NCBI GenBank assembly: GCA_900317815.1
Contig: ONIC01000026.1
Span: forward strand, 1 to 37,652
DNA: 37,652 nt
Direction: 5' to 3'
DNA from: an uncultured Eubacteriales bacterium
Lineage (GTDB): Bacteria; Bacillota; Clostridia; Oscillospirales; Acutalibacteraceae
The position numbers and the translations under genes are program-made. Positions 8,671 to 35,194 of this stretch are shown here, piece after piece. Numbering within the stretch: the stretch's first letter is position 1; every line of letters begins with the position of its first letter. The notes beneath the pieces were generated by a model. That model worked only from the letters and a program-made list of their open reading frames with translations, ran no database searches and was not told the DNA's origin.

Positions 8671-10011
8671 TCAATAACCGTTGAGATGAAATTCCTTTAT
8701 TACAGATGGGTAATCTATGTATGCGATGTCAACGTCAACATCGCCGTTTATACCGTTTACCCTGCCGACGCCGTACTGCCAGATACCATACTGATTATTG
8801 TAGGTAACGCGGCTGCTCCATTCTGCTACCCAGAACGCATAGCGGCACTGCACTTCATAGGAGATAACGCTCTGAGCGAACGCTCTCGACATATAGAAGC
8901 CTGCGTAGTAGTAGTTTTTCTCGATCTCGTCGCAGAACGATGTTACAAGCGACGAACAGAACGACATTCCCCTTGAAAGCTGCCAGCTTTCTTCAAGATC
9001 GAAGTAGATCGGGTATTCAAACTTCTTGCCTTTTATCGCCTGAAGGCAGACCTGAGCTTCGAGCTTTGCATCTGCGGCGCTTTGGGCGTATGAGTACCAG
9101 TATACTCCGACATCGAGTCCCGCCGCCTTTGCGCGCGCATAATTCTGCTCAAAATAAGCGTCCTTCTGATAAATGCTGTTGCCGTAGCCCGCTCTGATTA
9201 TTACAAAGTCTATGCCCGAGGCTTTGACTTTGTTGAAATCTATATTGTACTGCCAGGCGGAAACGTCGATACCGTATCTGAATGCCGAATCGTCCCGTGC
9301 CTGAGTGGAAGAAGATTTGTCCTCCGACTTGCTGACTACCTCGCCCATCGAAACAGCGACACGAAGTATCAGGAATGCGTCCGCGCTGTCTATAACGCCG
9401 TCGCCGTTCATTCCCGCATATCTTAGTCTGTCCGCGCTTATCGAAGATCTGTATCCGACAGAGTAGCGCAGAACAAGCAGCGCATCCTCGCTCGTCACGA
9501 GCTTGTCGCCGCTGACATCTCCGAGAGGCGTCGTGTCTTTGGGCGGCTCGGGTTCCGGTTCCGGTTCGGGTTCGGGCTCAGGCTCCGGTTCGGGCTCATC
9601 GGGCGTTATCGGCACATCGGGCGTATCCGCTTTATCGGGAGCATCAGGTGTATCGGGAGTGTCCGCCGTGTCGGGTGTGTCATTCGTATCCGGTTCGCAG
9701 GAATACGCCTGCGGATCTTCAGGCGCAGCCGTATCGGGAGTATCCTTCTCAGGCGCATCGCACGTCTGAACGGGTTGACCGTCTTCCGAAGAGAGAGCCG
9801 CCGTATCTTCTGTACCCTCGGGCGTATCGGCAGTCTGTACAGATACGGGAATATCGCCTGTATCTGCGAGATCGGGAGTATCCGCCGTTTCACAAGCTTC
9901 TGCGGACGCACAGACAGCAGTTGAGACAGCTAACGCAGGAAGCGCCGCCGAGGTCACCATCACGACCGCCAGAAGCAGAGAAACAAGTTTTTTTCTATTC
10001 AATTTTCTCAC
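8671..10011 (-). CDS. secreted GH25 lysozyme with dockerin
   Basis: Extracellular muramidase-type enzyme that hydrolyses peptidoglycan. Layout: signal peptide to about residue 30 (KKLVSLLLAVVMVTSAALPALA). A long low-complexity linker of Thr-Pro-Asp repeats and an (Glu-Pro)n run reaches about residue 158. A type I dockerin follows (about 163-225). The GH25 domain (about 243-446) has YGIDVSAWQ, the YFDLEES catalytic acids and IWQYG. Dockerin loop 1 (DVSGDKLVTSEDA) is normal; loop 2 reads GMNGDGVIDSADA, with Gly in place of the first calcium-binding Asp. The central position of the dockerin is uncommon. The start is uncertain: GTG at 10011 lies very close to AAAGGAG, and an in-frame TTG three codons later has better spacing. 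It is monocistronic. Confidence 0.93.
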   Translation of the reverse strand: MRKLNRKKLVSLLLAVVMVTSAALPALAVSTAVCASAEACETADTPDLADTGDIPVSVQTADTPEGTEDTAALSSEDGQPVQTCDAPEKDTPDTAAPEDPQAYSCEPDTNDTPDTADTPDTPDAPDKADTPDVPITPDEPEPEPEPEPEPEPEPEPPKDTTPLGDVSGDKLVTSEDALLVLRYSVGYRSSISADRLRYAGMNGDGVIDSADAFLILRVAVSMGEVVSKSEDKSSSTQARDDSAFRYGIDVSAWQYNIDFNKVKASGIDFVIIRAGYGNSIYQKDAYFEQNYARAKAAGLDVGVYWYSYAQSAADAKLEAQVCLQAIKGKKFEYPIYFDLEESWQLSRGMSFCSSLVTSFCDEIEKNYYYAGFYMSRAFAQSVISYEVQCRYAFWVAEWSSRVTYNNQYGIWQYGVGRVNGINGDVDVDIAYIDYPSVIKEFHLNGY

Positions 10012-22122: not shown

Positions 22123-23817
22123 TCAGAATTCGGCAAGAAGTCCGAGCGATCTTCGAAGGATCATCAGCGCGTCTTCAGAAGTGACAACGCCGTCAAAGTT
22201 TACATCGCAGTTGTTGAGCTGCAGATCCGTAAGACCTGTGAAAATGCCGACAGCTTCCCTGAGTGCGATCAGAGCGTCCTCAGAGGTCACACACGCATCA
22301 TCGTTGGGGTCACCGAGAACATCGCTGCCCGCTACCGCCTTTATAACGAGTGTTCCGCCGATCTCGTCGCCGTTTTCAAGATAGACATCAAGAAGATCGT
22401 ATACATTGCTGCCGTCGATGATGAAGCTCTGATTCTTGCGGGCATCGGGCATGAAGATATAGTCTCCGCTGCTGTTGACGAGCCACTCGTCCACTCCGAG
22501 CTGAGCCCAGCCGCCCGATTTTGAAGCGTCTATCTCAACGCCGATCGCCGCCTTCCCCGACACCTCAACGGCACCCGAAACATCAGCCTTGATATATCCC
22601 GAGCTGTCGGCAGTACCGTTTGCAAGCTCTGTCCAGTTATTTCGGTCGGTATCGGGCTTTCCGGATTTCAGAGGGATATAGTAGACCGTATACTGCGCGC
22701 CCTGAGCCTGCGTTTCAAAAATGACCTCACGAAGATACTTGTGAACGTCGTCAAAATTGAAAACGTTTGCAAAGGTCGCCTTCGGTATCATACCGTTTTC
22801 CCCGCTCAGGTATGTGTAGTACGTTGCGCCGTATATCTCGTTCTGGTAGAGTCTGTCGTAGCCGTTCAGCGTGCGCACCGCAGTTATCGCAAGGTTGGAG
22901 CCCCAGATAGAATCGAGCACATATTTATCGTAATATGAGATCCACAGATATCCCTCATCGCCCTTCTGATCGCCCCAGCTGTTTTTGGCAAGCCATGCGC
23001 CGTCCTGTTCGGGCTGATCCGACGGATCGAAATTAAAGCGCGAATAGCTGTCGTCCCAGCCGATGATAGTAACGGCGTGACCGGAAAAATAGGACGAGGT
23101 ATAACTCTGATAGTAATTCGACTTATCCGCATTGTAGCCGCTGCCGTTATTGAAAGACGTGGCGACTCCGCCGTAGTTAAAGACCGCCGTTTTGACCGAC
23201 TCTATATCATTGTTGACGTACATGATCCCCGTAACGCCGAACTGTGTTTCGAGGTCGTCCATATTATCGGGCAAGTTATTATTCCCGTACAGCACATAAG
23301 GCAGGTCTTCTTCTGCCTTCGGTCCCTGCCACGAGGCAAGATATCCCCCGCTTATCATACTGTATCCGCCGTAATCAAGGTTAGGGGTCAGCCAGCCTAT
23401 ACCGTCATCGTTATATGTCTTGGTTGCCCACCAGCTCAGGTGCTGCTCCGAAAAGTCGAAATCTCCTCTTCCGTTGTGCGACATATACGCTTCGAGCGCA
23501 CCGAGCCCCGAGAACGCCCAGCAGGAGTTGCTGCCGCCCTGGTTTCTTATGCCTGTCGTTTCCGTTCTGTACGAAGACGGCAGAGCGCTGCCCGAGTGCA
23601 GGACCGTTCCCGACGGCATATAGGGAGACGGCTTGACTCCCGAGCTTTCATCGAAGATCATCGCTCCCGACATCTCATCGGTCTTGGCGCCCGATGTATA
23701 TAAAACGCGCACAGCGTCTGTCCTGTCCGCAGGTACAGTCAAAGCTGTGCTAGACACGGCAGCGCTCGCAGAGAGCGCCGTGCATATCAAAAATCTGGCA
23801 AAATTCATTCTGTTCAT
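22123..23817 (-). CDS. secreted papain-like (C1A) protease with dockerin
   Basis: Extracellular cysteine peptidase, 564 residues. Signal peptide up to about residue 27. The catalytic domain has the oxyanion Gln and nucleophile Cys in RNQGGSNSCWAFSG (Gln93, Cys99), the His in YFSGHAVTIIGWDD and the Asn in AKNSWGDQKGDEGYLWISY. A beta-rich lectin-like region follows to about residue 490, as in other clostridial C1 peptidases. A C-terminal type I dockerin (LGDPNDDACVTSEDALIALR, then CDVNFDGVVTSEDALMILRR) shows it can dock to a cohesin scaffold. The frame runs further upstream, but GGAGGTCGG lies just before the ATG at 23817. It has its own promoter and ends at the shared terminator. Confidence 0.94.
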   Translation of the reverse strand: MNRMNFARFLICTALSASAAVSSTALTVPADRTDAVRVLYTSGAKTDEMSGAMIFDESSGVKPSPYMPSGTVLHSGSALPSSYRTETTGIRNQGGSNSCWAFSGLGALEAYMSHNGRGDFDFSEQHLSWWATKTYNDDGIGWLTPNLDYGGYSMISGGYLASWQGPKAEEDLPYVLYGNNNLPDNMDDLETQFGVTGIMYVNNDIESVKTAVFNYGGVATSFNNGSGYNADKSNYYQSYTSSYFSGHAVTIIGWDDSYSRFNFDPSDQPEQDGAWLAKNSWGDQKGDEGYLWISYYDKYVLDSIWGSNLAITAVRTLNGYDRLYQNEIYGATYYTYLSGENGMIPKATFANVFNFDDVHKYLREVIFETQAQGAQYTVYYIPLKSGKPDTDRNNWTELANGTADSSGYIKADVSGAVEVSGKAAIGVEIDASKSGGWAQLGVDEWLVNSSGDYIFMPDARKNQSFIIDGSNVYDLLDVYLENGDEIGGTLVIKAVAGSDVLGDPNDDACVTSEDALIALREAVGIFTGLTDLQLNNCDVNFDGVVTSEDALMILRRSLGLLAEF

Positions 23818-23851
23818 GATCCGACCTCCGCCGAACTGTATATTACTTTCT

Positions 23852-23881
23852 ATTATAACAGAACACCCCGCCAAAAGTCAA
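23852..23881 (-). promoter_or_regulatory. promoter of the dockerin protease gene
   Basis: Minus strand TTGACT (23876-23881), 18-base spacer, TATAAT (23852-23857). The -35 lies immediately beside the hairpin repeat cluster. Confidence 0.7.
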
Positions 23882-29992: not shown

Positions 29993-30252
29993 GCGGCACT
30001 AAAGGTAATGCATACGATAAACTAAGTTCGCGTATGTGTCAGCGGACACTGCCCGCCGCGGCACTAAAGGTAATGCATACGATAAACTAAGTTCGCGTAA
30101 TTGTCAGCGGGCACTGCCCGCCGCGGCACTAAAGGTAAGGCATATAATAACCTGAGTTCGCGTAATTGTCAGCGGACACTGTCCGCCGCGGCACTAAAGG
30201 TAAGGCATACGATAAACTAAGTTCGCGTAATTGTCAGCGGGCACTGCCCGCC
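29993..30252 (-). repeat. hairpin repeat cluster 2 (four 65-bp units)
   Basis: Four head-to-tail units of exactly 65 bp starting at 29993, 30058, 30123 and 30188: GCGGCACTAAAGGTAATGC, ATACGATAAACTAAGTTCGC, GTAATTGTCAGCGGGCACTG and CCCGCC. They are the reverse complement of the 65-bp units in cluster 1, hence strand minus relative to that cluster. The cluster ends 12 bases before the smpB -35. Confidence 0.95.
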
Positions 30253-30264
30253 CGCAAATTTATC

Positions 30265-30293
30265 TTGACAAACGGGCGCAGGTGTGTTATTAT
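30265..30293 (+). promoter_or_regulatory. smpB-ssrA promoter
   Basis: TTGACA (30265-30270), 17-base spacer, TATTAT (30288-30293). No second promoter is evident before the tmRNA, so both are likely transcribed together. Confidence 0.8.
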
Positions 30294-30327
30294 AAAATAC
30301 CACAGAAAAAGAAGGAGCGTGAGCGCT

Positions 30328-30798
30328 ATGGCTCAGGTGCAGAAAGACACACGAACAATTGCACAGAACAAGAAAGCGCATCACGAGTACTTCGTGCTTG
30401 AGAGCTTTGAGGCAGGTATTGAGCTTTGCGGAACGGAAGTCAAATCCGTGCGCGCAGGGCGTGTAAACCTCAAGGACAGCTGGTGCTCGATCGTCGGCGG
30501 CGAGATCTTCGTCAACGGAATGCACATCAGCCCATACGAGCAGGGAAACATTTTCAATAAAGACCCGCTCAGAGTACGCAGACTGCTTATGCACAAGCGC
30601 GAGATCAACCGCCTGTACGGTCACTTAAAGCAGGACGGCGTGTCTATAATCCCGCTGTCACTCTATTTCAAGGGCAGCCGCGTCAAAATGTCGGTCGGTC
30701 TCTGCAAGGGTAAAAAGCTCTACGACAAGCGCGCCGATATGGCGGAACGCTCCGCCAAGCGTGACATCGAACGCACGATCAAAGAGCAAAACAGATAA
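30328..30798 (+). CDS. smpB: SsrA-binding protein SmpB
   Basis: Binds tmRNA and brings it to stalled ribosomes for trans-translation. 156 residues with family landmarks: [31 protein letters not shown] at the N-terminus, [13 protein letters not shown] in the middle, and the C-terminal Lys/Arg-rich tail ([20 protein letters not shown]) that mimics mRNA in the decoding centre. The open frame runs 54 codons further upstream through the tandem repeats, but AAGGAG at 30312 and conservation fix the start at 30328. The tmRNA gene begins six bases after its stop. Confidence 0.98.
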
Positions 30799-30803
30799 CA
30801 CAC

Positions 30804-31149
30804 GGGGGTGTAAAGGCTTCGACGGGGACTGCAAACCCCGGTAAGCGAGCAGCGGCGCGGAACCGCTTTAAAAGCCGCAACTTAAAAACAAACGACAACG
30901 ATACAGTTGCATTAGCAGCCTAAGCGCTGCTCGTCCTGCCCGTGAGTACCGCGGCTCGGGTAAGGGCGTCACTCAGCGGTGAACGCAAATGGGTACACTC
31001 CTTTAACCCGTCTGTGTATTAAAGGATACCAAGCATTGAAGCCTGTCGCAGGGCGGCAATGCGAGGGAATTTCAAAACAGCGACTACGCTCGTAGAAAGC
31101 CTCGGCAAACGGTTTTCGGACAGGGGTTCGATTCCCCTCACCTCCACCA
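30804..31149 (+). ncRNA. ssrA: transfer-messenger RNA
   Basis: 346-base tmRNA that rescues stalled ribosomes and tags the nascent peptide. The acceptor stem GGGGGTG pairs with CACCTCC before an encoded ACCA end. The 5' tRNA-like part has TAAAGGCTTCGAC; the 3' part has the T-arm GGTTCGATTCCCC. The tag reading frame ends ...TNDNDTVALAA then TAA (30920-30922), with the ALAA proteolysis signal; the exact resume codon is not certain (likely two to four codons before TND). Pseudoknot-forming segments lie on both sides. Adjacent to smpB, its protein partner. Confidence 0.97.
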
Positions 31150-31300: not shown

Positions 31301-34300
31301 TTACTTAACGTCGGTTACCTTCCAGAGCTCTTCTGCGTACTGGAGGATCGTTCTGTCGGAGCTGAACTTGCCTGCGTTTGCAACGTTCATCAGGCACTTT
31401 CTGCCCCAGGCCTGTCTGTCCTCGTAGTCGGCGTTAGCCCTGATCTTCGTCTCAACATAGGACGGGAGATCGAGGAGAATGAAGTAGTGGTCGGGATCGT
31501 GCCAAGCAGCGCCGTTGATAAGCGAATTGTGGAGCTCTGCGAAGCTGCCCTCGCCCTGTCTGCCGCCGTCGGAGAATGTGCCGTCGATAAGAGTGTCGAT
31601 GACCTTCTTGATCTCGGGGTTCGACTCGTAGATCTTTCTTGAGCTGTACGATCTGTCAGCCTTGAGCTTCTCGATCTCTTCGACCTTTGCGCCGAAGATG
31701 TACTCGTTCTCATCGCCTGCTTCACGAGCGATCTCGACATTAGCGCCGTCGAGAGTACCGAGAGTTACGGCACCGTTGAGCATGAACTTCATGTTAGAAG
31801 TACCCGAAGCCTCTGTACCTGCTGTGGAGATCTGCTCGGAGAAATCTGCTGCAGTAACGATCTTCTCGGCGTAAGATACGTTGTAGTTCTGAACGAATAC
31901 GACCTTGATCTTGCCATGCATATCGGGATCGTTGTTGACGAGCTTTGCGATCTCGTTGATGTACTTGATGATAGCCTTAGCTCTTGCATATCCGGGAGCA
32001 GCCTTTGCGCCGAAAATGAACGCTGTCGGATGCCAGTTCGGAAGCTCGCCGTTCTTGAGCTTGAAGTAGATGCTCATGATCGAGAATGCGTTCATAAGCT
32101 GTCTCTTGTACTCGTGGAGACGCTTTACCTGAATGTCAAATACAGCGTCGGGGTTGAGGTCAACGCCCTCGTGCTTGCTGATGTACTCTGCAAGCTGACG
32201 CTTCTTTTCAAACTTGATAGCGTTGAAGCGGTTGATCGTTTCCTCGTTAATGTGTGCTTCGAGCTTCTTGAGCTCGTCGAGGTTGCGAAGGTACTTGTCA
32301 TCGCCGATAGCATCTGTGAGAAGCTCGCAGAGCTCGGGGTTGCACAGACCGAGCCAGCGGCGCTGTGTGATACCGTTCGTCTTGTTCTGGAAACGCTCGG
32401 GGTACATCTTGTACCAATCCTTGAGTGTGTCGGCCTTGAGGATCTCTGTGTGGATCTCTGCAACGCCGTTTGTATAACTGGAAGCGTAGACTGCCATTCT
32501 TGCCATGTGAACTACGCCGCCGTCAATGATCCTCATTCTCGAAATGTCGCACTTCGGGCCGAGATCCTTCTCAAGTCTGTCAGCGATCTTCTCGATAATA
32601 GCGTAAACCTCGGGGATAACGCCGCGCATAAGATCAATGTTCCACTTCTCGAGAGCCTCTGCCATAACCGTGTGGTTCGTATAAGAGAACGTCTTCTGAG
32701 CGATCTTGAAGGACTCCTCGAATGTGAGACCGTCCTGCATAAGAAGTCTGATGAGCTCGGGAACCGATACTACAGGGTGTGTATCATTGAGCTGGATAGC
32801 AGTCTCCTCAGCAAACTTATTATAGTTGTCACCGTACTTCTTCTTGTACTTCTTGATGATATCCTGGAGAGATGCCGAGCAGAAGAAATACTGCTGCTTG
32901 AGTCTTAATACCTTGCCTTCGTGGCGGTTGTCATTCGGGTAGAGAACGTTTGTGATATCCTCTGCCTTGATCTTGTCGGCAACTGCGCCGTTGTAATCGA
33001 AGTTGTTGAACTTGAGGAAGTCGAAGTTCTCAACTGCCTCTGCCTCCCAAAGACGGAGAGTATTGATATTTTCCGTGCCGTAGCCGATAATAGCCATATC
33101 GTAAGGAACTGCCTTAACGACCTGATCTGCAAACTTAACGAGAACAGTATCCTCGTTTCTTCTGATGCACCACGGATCGCCGAAGCGCTGCCAGTCATCT
33201 GCTGTCTCGACCTGGAAGCCGTCTACAATGCTCTGCTTGAACAGACCGTACTTGTAGCGGATGCCGTAGCCGTCGAGCGGAACATCATGAGTTGCCGCGG
33301 AGTCCAAGAAGCAGGCTGCAAGTCTGCCGAGACCGCCGTTGCCGAGCGCTGCGTCGTCGATATCCTCGAATACGTTGATGTCGATGCCCTTCTTGAGAAG
33401 GATCTCCTTAACATCGTCAAGAATTCCGAGACAATAAAGGTTATTGTACATCATGCGTCCCATAAGGAACTCAGCGGAGAAGTAGTATGCACGTCTTCCG
33501 CTTGCGTGAACGTTCTTAGCCTTCGCCCAACGCTCCGAGAGCTGCCCCATTACTGCCTTGCCGAGTTCCTCGTGGAGTTCCTCGACAGTAAGCTCTTCGA
33601 CTGTCTTACAGTAATCTGTCTTGGCAGCCAACTCGAGCTTCTCCAGAATCGGGTTCTTCTCTGTTGTTTTCTCCATAATTTCGCTTTCCTCCAACCTATC
33701 AGTTCTGATAGTCAATTCTCTGATCTTCTTTGCAAGACCATTAGTGGCATAACCTTTTCTGATCCTCCACTCCCAGTTGCCGCCGAGAGTCGAAGGTGTA
33801 TTTACTCTCGCCTCGCTGCCGAGCCCGAGCAGATCCTGCATCTGAATGATAGCGGTGTCTGCAACGCTCTCGTATGCGGTGCGGATAATACCCCAGTTGA
33901 ACGGCTCGTCCCTGCCCATCTTGCAATAGCTTCTTGCAAAATCGACGCAGTCCTTCTTTGCCGTCTTGACCCAGCCCATAAGCGTGTCGTTGTCGTGAGT
34001 ACCGGAGTAAACAACACAGTTGGTCGGGTAGTGTTCGGGAAGATAATCGTTCTCCTCGTCGGAATCGAACGCAAACTCAAGCACCTTCATGCCCGGATAG
34101 CCCGAATCCTTAAGAAGCTGTATAACGCCGGGAGTCATCGTTCCGAGATCCTCCGCAATGATCGGAAGATCGCCGAGCTCTTTTTTCATAAGCTCAAAGA
34201 ACTCGATGCCGGGGCCCTTCTCCCACGAACCCTTTACTGCGTTCTCGGCAGGATACGGGATCGCCCAGTAACTGTCGAACGCTCTGAAATGGTCGATACG

Positions 34301-35194
34301 TGTGATATCAAACAGCTCGCTTGCCGCTTTGATACGCTCGAACCACCACTTGTAGCCTGTTTCCTTCAGGTGCTTCCAATCATAGATAGGATTGCCCCAG
34401 AGCTGACCTGTTGCCGAGAAATAATCCGGCGGACATCCTGCAACGCATACAGGCTGTCTGTCCTCCGTCAGCCAGAAGACGTCGGGATTTGCCCATGTAT
34501 CTGCGCTGTCCATTGCAACGTAGATAGGCATATCTCCGATGATCTGAATGCCCAGACCGTTTACATAGGCTCTGAACTTCTCCCACTGCTGATAGAATTT
34601 GAACTGCGTCCACTTCCAGAACGCGATCTCATTGCGAAGAGAAGCCTTGTACTTTTTGACAGCCTCCGGTGTGCGAAGGCGGATGCCCTCGTCCTCCCAT
34701 TCGGTCCATGCCTTATTGTCAAAGTGACCCTTTACCGCCATGTAGAGCGAATAATTGTCGAGCCACGCCTTGTTCTTAGACTTGCTGCACCATGCCTTGA
34801 ATTCCTTCTGCTCCGCCTCTCTTGCGGGGTCCTTCTTCTTGAAGTTCTTGAAGGCGATCCTCAGGACCTTGAAGCGGTTGTTGTAGATCTTGGCATAATC
34901 GACATACTCGCTGTTTGTACCCCAGTCGAGGTTCCTGTAATCGGAATGCTTGAGCAGACCTTCACCGTACAGCGTATCGAGGTCGATAAGGTAAGGATTT
35001 CCCGCAAATGTCGAGAACGACTGATACGGCGAGTCACCGTAGCTTGTCGGACCTACCGGCAGGATCTGCCAGTACTTCTGACCTGCACCTTTCAGGAAAT
35101 TGGCAAAGTCGTAAGCGTCCTTTCCGATCGTACCGATTCCGCAGCGAGTCGGAAGAGATGTAATGGGCATAAGAATGCCCGCAGCTCTGGACAT
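31301..35194 (-). CDS. 4-alpha-glucanotransferase / glycogen phosphorylase fusion (MalQ-GlgP)
   Basis: A single 1,297-codon frame joins two enzymes of glycogen and maltodextrin breakdown. Residues 1-506 are a complete GH77 amylomaltase (MalQ): SRAAGILMPITSLPTRCGIG, QILPVGPTSYGDSPY, IIGDMPIYVAMDSAD, ITRIDHFRAFDSYW, IAEDLGTMTPGV and SGTHDNDTLMGW. Residues 507-1297 are a complete GT35 glycogen phosphorylase (GlgP): AYYFSAEFLMGR, ALGNGGLGRLAACFLDS and the PLP lysine in EASGTSNMKFMLNG. Each part has normal length and there is no real linker. At the junction (33674-33711) a GGAGGAAAG ribosome site precedes the GlgP ATG at 33676, exactly as if two genes had lost the stop between them, so free GlgP may also be made. 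The start is ATG 35194 (AAAGGTG upstream). Confidence 0.93.
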   Translation of the reverse strand: MSRAAGILMPITSLPTRCGIGTIGKDAYDFANFLKGAGQKYWQILPVGPTSYGDSPYQSFSTFAGNPYLIDLDTLYGEGLLKHSDYRNLDWGTNSEYVDYAKIYNNRFKVLRIAFKNFKKKDPAREAEQKEFKAWCSKSKNKAWLDNYSLYMAVKGHFDNKAWTEWEDEGIRLRTPEAVKKYKASLRNEIAFWKWTQFKFYQQWEKFRAYVNGLGIQIIGDMPIYVAMDSADTWANPDVFWLTEDRQPVCVAGCPPDYFSATGQLWGNPIYDWKHLKETGYKWWFERIKAASELFDITRIDHFRAFDSYWAIPYPAENAVKGSWEKGPGIEFFELMKKELGDLPIIAEDLGTMTPGVIQLLKDSGYPGMKVLEFAFDSDEENDYLPEHYPTNCVVYSGTHDNDTLMGWVKTAKKDCVDFARSYCKMGRDEPFNWGIIRTAYESVADTAIIQMQDLLGLGSEARVNTPSTLGGNWEWRIRKGYATNGLAKKIRELTIRTDRLEESEIMEKTTEKNPILEKLELAAKTDYCKTVEELTVEELHEELGKAVMGQLSERWAKAKNVHASGRRAYYFSAEFLMGRMMYNNLYCLGILDDVKEILLKKGIDINVFEDIDDAALGNGGLGRLAACFLDSAATHDVPLDGYGIRYKYGLFKQSIVDGFQVETADDWQRFGDPWCIRRNEDTVLVKFADQVVKAVPYDMAIIGYGTENINTLRLWEAEAVENFDFLKFNNFDYNGAVADKIKAEDITNVLYPNDNRHEGKVLRLKQQYFFCSASLQDIIKKYKKKYGDNYNKFAEETAIQLNDTHPVVSVPELIRLLMQDGLTFEESFKIAQKTFSYTNHTVMAEALEKWNIDLMRGVIPEVYAIIEKIADRLEKDLGPKCDISRMRIIDGGVVHMARMAVYASSYTNGVAEIHTEILKADTLKDWYKMYPERFQNKTNGITQRRWLGLCNPELCELLTDAIGDDKYLRNLDELKKLEAHINEETINRFNAIKFEKKRQLAEYISKHEGVDLNPDAVFDIQVKRLHEYKRQLMNAFSIMSIYFKLKNGELPNWHPTAFIFGAKAAPGYARAKAIIKYINEIAKLVNNDPDMHGKIKVVFVQNYNVSYAEKIVTAADFSEQISTAGTEASGTSNMKFMLNGAVTLGTLDGANVEIAREAGDENEYIFGAKVEEIEKLKADRSYSSRKIYESNPEIKKVIDTLIDGTFSDGGRQGEGSFAELHNSLINGAAWHDPDHYFILLDLPSYVETKIRANADYEDRQAWGRKCLMNVANAGKFSSDRTILQYAEELWKVTDVK
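33674..33711 (-). promoter_or_regulatory. internal ribosome binding site for GlgP within the fusion
   Basis: Minus strand: inverted repeat CTATCAG-AA-CTGATAG (33696-33711), then TTGGAGGAAAGCGAAATT and ATG (33674-33676). The GGAGG lies about 11 bases before the ATG. In a shifted frame the CTGATAG arm supplies TGA TAG, so one extra or missing base upstream would separate the two genes. Confidence 0.7.

What the first reader, a model, noticed from the sequence alone, without database searches (positions are those of the whole stretch)
31301..35194. malQ and glgP fused in one frame with the old GlgP ribosome site retained
Seen: one uninterrupted 1,297-codon frame covers a full amylomaltase and a full glycogen phosphorylase with essentially no linker. 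A GGAGGAAAG site lies correctly before the GlgP ATG (33676), and a perfect CTATCAG/CTGATAG inverted repeat sits just before it. Known: MalQ and GlgP act in the same pathway and are normally separate proteins. Inference: loss of the malQ stop created a channeling fusion while internal initiation still yields free GlgP, giving two protein forms from one message. The hairpin could tune internal initiation. A one-base indel in assembly is the main alternative, since TGA TAG exists in another frame at the junction.
Basis: partly seen in the sequence, partly recalled or inferred. Interest (0 to 1): 0.72.

Follow-up and report, generated by a model that had tools for sequence, protein, structure and literature searches.

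The report
Fused starch enzymes with internal start
In a group of Ruminococcus-like bacteria, largely from animal guts, two starch-breakdown enzymes are joined into one long protein, yet the DNA in the middle has kept the second enzyme's own ribosome landing site, so the gene likely makes both the joined protein and the second enzyme alone.

Summary
The fusion is real: one frame, 35194-31301 (-), encodes a full GH77 4-alpha-glucanotransferase (MalQ) and a full GT35 phosphorylase (GlgP). It is not an assembly slip. Of 22 genomes of the genus, 15 (own included) carry it uninterrupted, two are fused across the junction but cut by contig ends, two are split, and three show no junction. I collected 53 distinct fused genes among 101 distinct junctions.

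The GlgP ribosome site inside the frame is kept as nucleotides. In the 53 fused genes Leu501 ends in G in 52/52 (mean 28% over 76 conserved Leu columns), Arg500 is the rare AGG in 45/53, Glu502 is GAG in 50/51, and 50/53 keep GGAGG plus ATG/GTG. The next best GGAGG in the gene is kept in 25/53. RNA there is unusually unstructured. Two sister genomes re-split the gene exactly at this point, so their GlgP must start there.

Best reading: one gene, two products, likely by internal initiation. The hairpin is not conserved. The 11-nt spacing is longer than the usual 6-9 nt, so initiation may be weak. No expression data exist.

The parts
31301..35194 (-). malQ-glgP fused open reading frame, 1,297 aa plus stop
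   Evidence: same frame uninterrupted in 15 of 22 genus genomes, own included
33752..35170 (-). MalQ (GH77) domain, residues 9-481
   Evidence: Pfam PF02446, E 5.6e-186
31316..33391 (-). GlgP (GT35 phosphorylase) Pfam domain, residues 602-1293
   Evidence: Pfam PF00343, E 1.5e-288
33686..33697 (-). Arg500-Leu-Glu-Glu codons AGG TTG GAG GAA holding the Shine-Dalgarno-like GGAGG (33692-33688)
   Evidence: codon-level conservation over 53 fused genes; coordinates
33674..33676 (-). internal ATG (Met507), predicted start of free GlgP
   Evidence: ATG in 51 of 53 fused genes, GTG start three bases nearer in one more
31301..33676 (-). predicted second product: free GlgP, 791 aa, 90 kDa
   Evidence: production itself not tested

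Best explanation
This is a true, clade-wide malQ-glgP gene fusion whose single message likely yields two proteins: the 148-kDa MalQ-GlgP enzyme and, by predicted initiation at the conserved internal GGAGG and ATG, a free 90-kDa GlgP. Shown: the fused frame, its spread, the preservation of the GGAGG and ATG as nucleotides, the low RNA structure there, and a later re-split at that very point in two sister genomes. Inferred: an ancestral malQ-glgP operon, in which the GlgP ribosome site overlapped the end of malQ, lost the malQ stop; the fused protein holds the two enzymes of the maltodextrin cycle together, as plant Pho1 and Dpe1 do by binding; and a fraction of ribosomes starts afresh at Met507 to supply extra GlgP. 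The long 11-nt spacing suggests that this fraction is modest.
For: 15 of 22 genus genomes carry the uninterrupted fusion; 53 distinct fused genes among 101 distinct junctions. Within the fused genes, same-gene controls: Leu501 is NTG in 52/52, the highest of 76 conserved Leu columns (next 0.83, mean 0.28); Arg500 is AGG in 45/53, highest of 31 Arg columns (next 0.27); Glu502 is GAG in 50/51, highest of 33 Glu columns (next 0.96). Of all codon positions and phases, GGAGG at residue 501 is kept in 50/53; the next site in 25/53. Met507 is kept in 51/53 while residues 504-506 and 508-512 show 4-9 amino acids each. The one genus member without that Met, L015, has GTG there instead, at 8 nt. Predicted folding of the 60 nt around the site averages -4.9 kcal/mol against -11.9 at 1,513 other in-frame ATGs; 1.4% of those are as open, 4.1% when GC-matched. 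In G009/G018 malQ ends in TAA and an intact glgP begins in another frame at an ATG 9 nt after GGAGG; trees nest L018 among fused genes and the alternative is rejected (AU p 0.0045 and 1.8e-39).
Against: No proteomic or ribosome-profiling data. The 11-nt spacing (49 of 53) is off the native peak: 29 of 39 GGAGG-ATG pairs near ORF starts lie at 6-9 nt, only 2 at 11. The genuine malQ start is no more open than other ATGs (-11.3), and a second openness measure is only weakly in favour (unpaired 0.54 against 0.45; 20% of 1,522 controls reach it). L129 has neither GGAGG nor a Met at that place, and L073/L080 have GGGGG, so the site is not indispensable; an independent fusion, L147, shows no Met in its linker. 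GGAGG kept in the coding frame could instead slow ribosomes between domains.
Confidence: 0.72

Rival explanations
1. Only the full-length fusion is made; the old ribosome site is a passive relic of the operon.
For: No expression data; long 11-nt spacing; L129, L073 and L080 show that the site can be lost or weakened.
Against: Other synonymous positions of the gene vary freely while the site does not; Met507 stands in an otherwise variable linker.
Confidence: 0.15
2. The conserved GGAGG is a ribosome-slowing element at the domain boundary that helps MalQ fold before GlgP is made, without initiation.
For: It lies exactly between two large domains; SD-like pausing inside genes has been proposed (recalled, disputed).
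Against: Does not explain the start codon kept at one distance (51/53 ATG, one GTG), the lack of RNA structure, or GlgP made from that point in the re-split G009/G018.
Confidence: 0.08
3. Sequencing or assembly error joined two genes, one base being wrong near 33700.
For: TGA TAG exists in another frame at the junction; the genome is a 217-contig draft.
Against: 14 other genus genomes, 79-92% identical, have the same open frame; 53 distinct fused genes; 111 of the 120 listed best database matches to the MalQ part have both domains.
Confidence: 0.01
4. The fusion is made as one chain and cut by a protease between the domains.
For: A charged, variable linker.
Against: Predicts conserved amino acids, not conserved codons; what is kept is AGG-NTG-GAG and ATG.
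Confidence: 0.03

Closest known systems
Linked malP-malQ genes of Ruminococcus bromii (PMC5814915, passages seen)
   Same: Same two enzymes, same order in the DNA (malQ then glgP), same maltodextrin cycle; in R. bromii YE282 (L103) the frame is also shared and the GGAGG sits in the last malQ codons.
   Different: A TAA stop separates the genes and the ATG lies 8 nt after GGAGG, not 11.
Plant Pho1-Dpe1 complex (PMC5417683 abstract; PMC12892837 passages; PDB 9lpw, 9lpz, 9m80 list both chains)
   Same: Homologous phosphorylase and disproportionating enzyme held together, reported to use short maltodextrins better than the free enzymes.
   Different: Non-covalent and plastidial; the bacterial form is one chain and its activity is untested.
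Bacterial N-terminal proteoforms by internal initiation (CheA, CcmM, infB; PMC11005335 passages)
   Same: One gene giving a long protein and an in-frame shorter one from an internal start.
   Different: Here the short form would be a whole enzyme whose start is inherited from a once separate gene.
glgB-malQ fusion of Neisseria suica (PMC11046441 passages)
   Same: A malQ gene fused to another glycogen enzyme.
   Different: Partner is the branching enzyme; no retained internal start was mentioned in the passages seen.

Membership tests
GH77 4-alpha-glucanotransferase (MalQ) | Near-complete GH77 domain above the curated cut-off | tested here: met
   PF02446 619 bits (cut-off 25), profile 1-462 of 465; TIGR00217 malQ above cut-off; motifs RIDHFR 299, IIAEDLG 345, THDND 399 present (their catalytic meaning is recalled)
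GT35 glycogen/maltodextrin phosphorylase (GlgP/MalP) | Complete phosphorylase domain and the PLP-lysine motif | tested here: met
   PF00343 960 bits, profile 4-713 of 713; TIGR02093 1009 bits over its cut-off 553; EASGTSNMK at 1128 (role recalled). Glycogen versus maltodextrin preference not resolved: both equivalog models fall below cut-off
Gene fusion of malQ and glgP | One uninterrupted frame, shared by independent genomes | tested here: met
Dual-product gene with internal in-frame start | Conserved ribosome site and start codon inside the frame | tested here: met
   50 of 53 fused genes, codon-level controls
Dual-product gene with internal in-frame start | Spacing within the usual native range | tested here: inconclusive
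   11 nt; 2 of 39 native-start pairs at 11 nt, 29 of 39 at 6-9 nt
Dual-product gene with internal in-frame start | Short protein detected in cells | not testable with these tools
   No expression data on hand
Pho1-Dpe1-like channelling assembly | Enhanced joint activity | not testable with these tools
   Analogy only

The most novel reading that the evidence does not exclude
A reversible gene fusion: because the fused gene keeps a working GlgP start inside its frame, it can be split again by a single stop or frameshift without losing either enzyme, and this has happened at least once (G009/G018) and perhaps also in the ancestor of Ruminococcus bromii, the keystone starch degrader, so that fused-plus-free and purely separate enzymes are interchangeable states of one locus.
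Probability: 0.4. Interest if true: 0.65.

Novelty: new variant of a known kind. Interest (0 to 1): 0.5.

Why it matters
Gene fusions are normally read as a one-way loss of separate products. Here comparative evidence suggests a fusion that keeps the free downstream enzyme too, which would set the ratio of coupled to free phosphorylase by the strength of an internal ribosome site, and would make fusion evolutionarily reversible. Annotation pipelines name the product only 4-alpha-glucanotransferase, so the phosphorylase half and its free form are easily missed in gut starch-degraders. The R. bromii comparison (split, 8 nt) against fused kin (11 nt) makes a clean test possible.

Tried and rejected
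Assembly error: rejected. Hairpin as regulator: the 6-bp stem is complete in L001, L003, L005 and L006 of 16 fused genus genes, with one two-sided change between L001 and the others, and 1-5 of 6 pairs elsewhere; not conserved. Internal site as a chance sighting: rate 13 of 1,454 interior ATGs, so not excluded by one genome but excluded by conservation. Independent fusions as further support: P0090, P0095 and P0114 show a Met a few residues after the MalQ end, but I had no DNA for them; L147, the one for which I had DNA, shows no Met in its linker. Census outside the family: in 391 class genomes (query P0105) the capped match list shows G541, G063 and the own genome uninterrupted; in 398 phylum genomes (query P0095) only the own genome. 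Claim that the R. bromii clade is a re-split: favoured in the trees (3 changes) but not significant: AU p 0.214, 0.072 without L129, and 0.746 on the quick tree, where the tree holding all fused genes plus L018/L019 together scored 21 log units better than the free search. So I give it only as a possibility. Literature searches for a malQ-glgP fusion (open-access library only) gave no paper describing it that I could see in the listings or passages; I did not read every listed paper.

Full report
Observation. The minus-strand frame 35194-31301 has 1,297 codons and no stop. It holds a near-complete GH77 domain (residues 9-481) and a complete phosphorylase domain (602-1293), both far above the curated cut-offs; the longer NCBIfam models leave only about 15 residues between the two. 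Motifs of both active sites are present (their roles are recalled). The draft genome (217 contigs) has no second MalQ match and one separate GlgP paralogue at 47% identity.

Not an artefact. In the genus (22 genomes, own included) 15 carry the frame uninterrupted, at 79-92% identity to the window. G014 and G012 are fused across the junction but cut by contig ends. G009 and G018 are split. G007 and G013 match only the paralogue, and G017 only a fragment of the GlgP end, so three show no junction. A scan of named genomes returned 80 loci (of 212 confirmed), most of them from MAGs titled Ruminococcus, Clostridia or Clostridiales, including rumen, rabbit, horse, sheep and roe deer samples and the isolate Ruminococcus sp. 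zg-924 (that RUG means rumen genomes is recalled). Of 146 loci held, 127 showed a junction; these reduce to 101 distinct ones, 53 fused and 48 split. This set was drawn by similarity to the window and is not a census. In the protein database, 111 of the 120 listed best matches to the MalQ part, restricted to long proteins, carry both domains, among them proteins named Bariatricus, Collinsella, Clostridium, Sarcina and [Clostridium] polysaccharolyticum. In wider samples the fusion is rare: (391 genomes; 398 genomes), whose match lists are capped.

The internal ribosome site is conserved as DNA. All 17 fused genus junctions read AGG-YTG-GAG-GA, followed by ATG in 16 and GTG in one. Over the 53 fused genes, 49 have ATG 11 nt after GGAGG and one (L015) GTG at 8 nt; L073 and L080 have GGGGG instead, and L129 has neither GGAGG nor a Met there. 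The same genes serve as control for relatedness. Leu501 is NTG in 52/52, the highest of 76 conserved Leu columns, whose mean is 28%; Arg500 is AGG in 45/53, where AGG makes up 51 of 1,546 codons in the other 30 conserved Arg columns; Glu502 is GAG in 50/51, the highest of 33 Glu columns, though two others reach 0.96. No other GGAGG in the gene is kept in more than 25 of 53. Met507 is kept in 51/53 although its neighbours 504-506 and 508-512 vary among 4-9 residues.

Accessibility. The 60 nt around the site fold at -4.9 kcal/mol on average (52 genes), against -11.9 for 1,513 other in-frame ATGs; 1.4% of the controls are as open, 4.1% of 365 GC-matched ones. Against this, the true malQ start is not open (-11.3, 50 genes), so openness is not a general mark of starts here, and the pairing-probability measure is weaker.

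Spacing. Near ORF starts in 50 related loci, 29 of 39 GGAGG-ATG pairs lie at 6-9 nt and 2 at 11 nt. The fused genes thus hold a spacing that is probably sub-optimal; the split R. bromii-type genes have 8 nt in most of the clade and G009/G018 have 9 nt. I read this as modest internal initiation in the fused state; that is inference.

History. Adjacent but separate malQ and glgP occur in other genera (L033, L034, L035). Trees from the two domains without the junction need three changes of state (101, 51 and 40 rows, the smaller sets hand-picked). Rooted on split outgroups, the fewest changes are one fusion and two re-splits. The re-split of G009/G018 is well supported (L018 alone was used): forcing the genus's fused genes together without it is rejected (p 0.0045). 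Their glgP is intact, in another frame, and can only be made from the internal start. The second, the R. bromii clade (27 distinct loci), is favoured but not significant (p 0.214 and 0.072; p 0.746), so an ancestral split there remains possible. R. bromii was described as having linked malP and malQ genes (PMC5814915, passages).

Function. MalQ and a phosphorylase together run the maltodextrin cycle (established knowledge). In plants the homologous pair binds into a complex reported to use malto-oligosaccharides better than the free enzymes (PMC5417683 abstract; PMC12892837 passages), and PDB entries 9lpw, 9lpz and 9m80 list both chains. The bacterial fusion would be a covalent counterpart; this is analogy. 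Genes giving a long and a short in-frame product are known in bacteria (PMC11005335 passages). What is new here is a fusion that appears to be under selection to keep the start of the gene it absorbed. A gene-fusion review of frame transitions was looked at in passages only (PMC3711429). Searches for a published malQ-glgP fusion found none (open-access library).

Verdict. Observation confirmed; fusion and retained site real and conserved; two products likely but unproven; hairpin not supported.

Noticed in passing
window 30804-31149 (+): tmRNA gene with tag DNDTVALAA, just after an ORF at 30166-30798 whose sequence looks like SmpB (by eye); the fused gene lies convergent beyond it.
   Followed up: partly
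window 8671-10011 (-) and 22123-23874 (-): Two proteins with type I dockerin domains, one with a GH25 lysozyme domain and one with a papain-like peptidase domain, hinting at a cellulosome-like system.
   Followed up: no
L128, L130-L144: Family-level search lists many malQ-glgP pairs in one frame separated only by stops; the search favours same-frame pairs, so this is not a frequency.
   Followed up: partly
L159, L160 (G706, G658): In another family malQ ends in TGG AGG TAA, so the Shine-Dalgarno for glgP forms the last malQ codons there too.
   Followed up: no
L129 (G151): Basal fused gene that has lost both GGAGG and the internal Met: a natural fusion-only comparison.
   Followed up: partly
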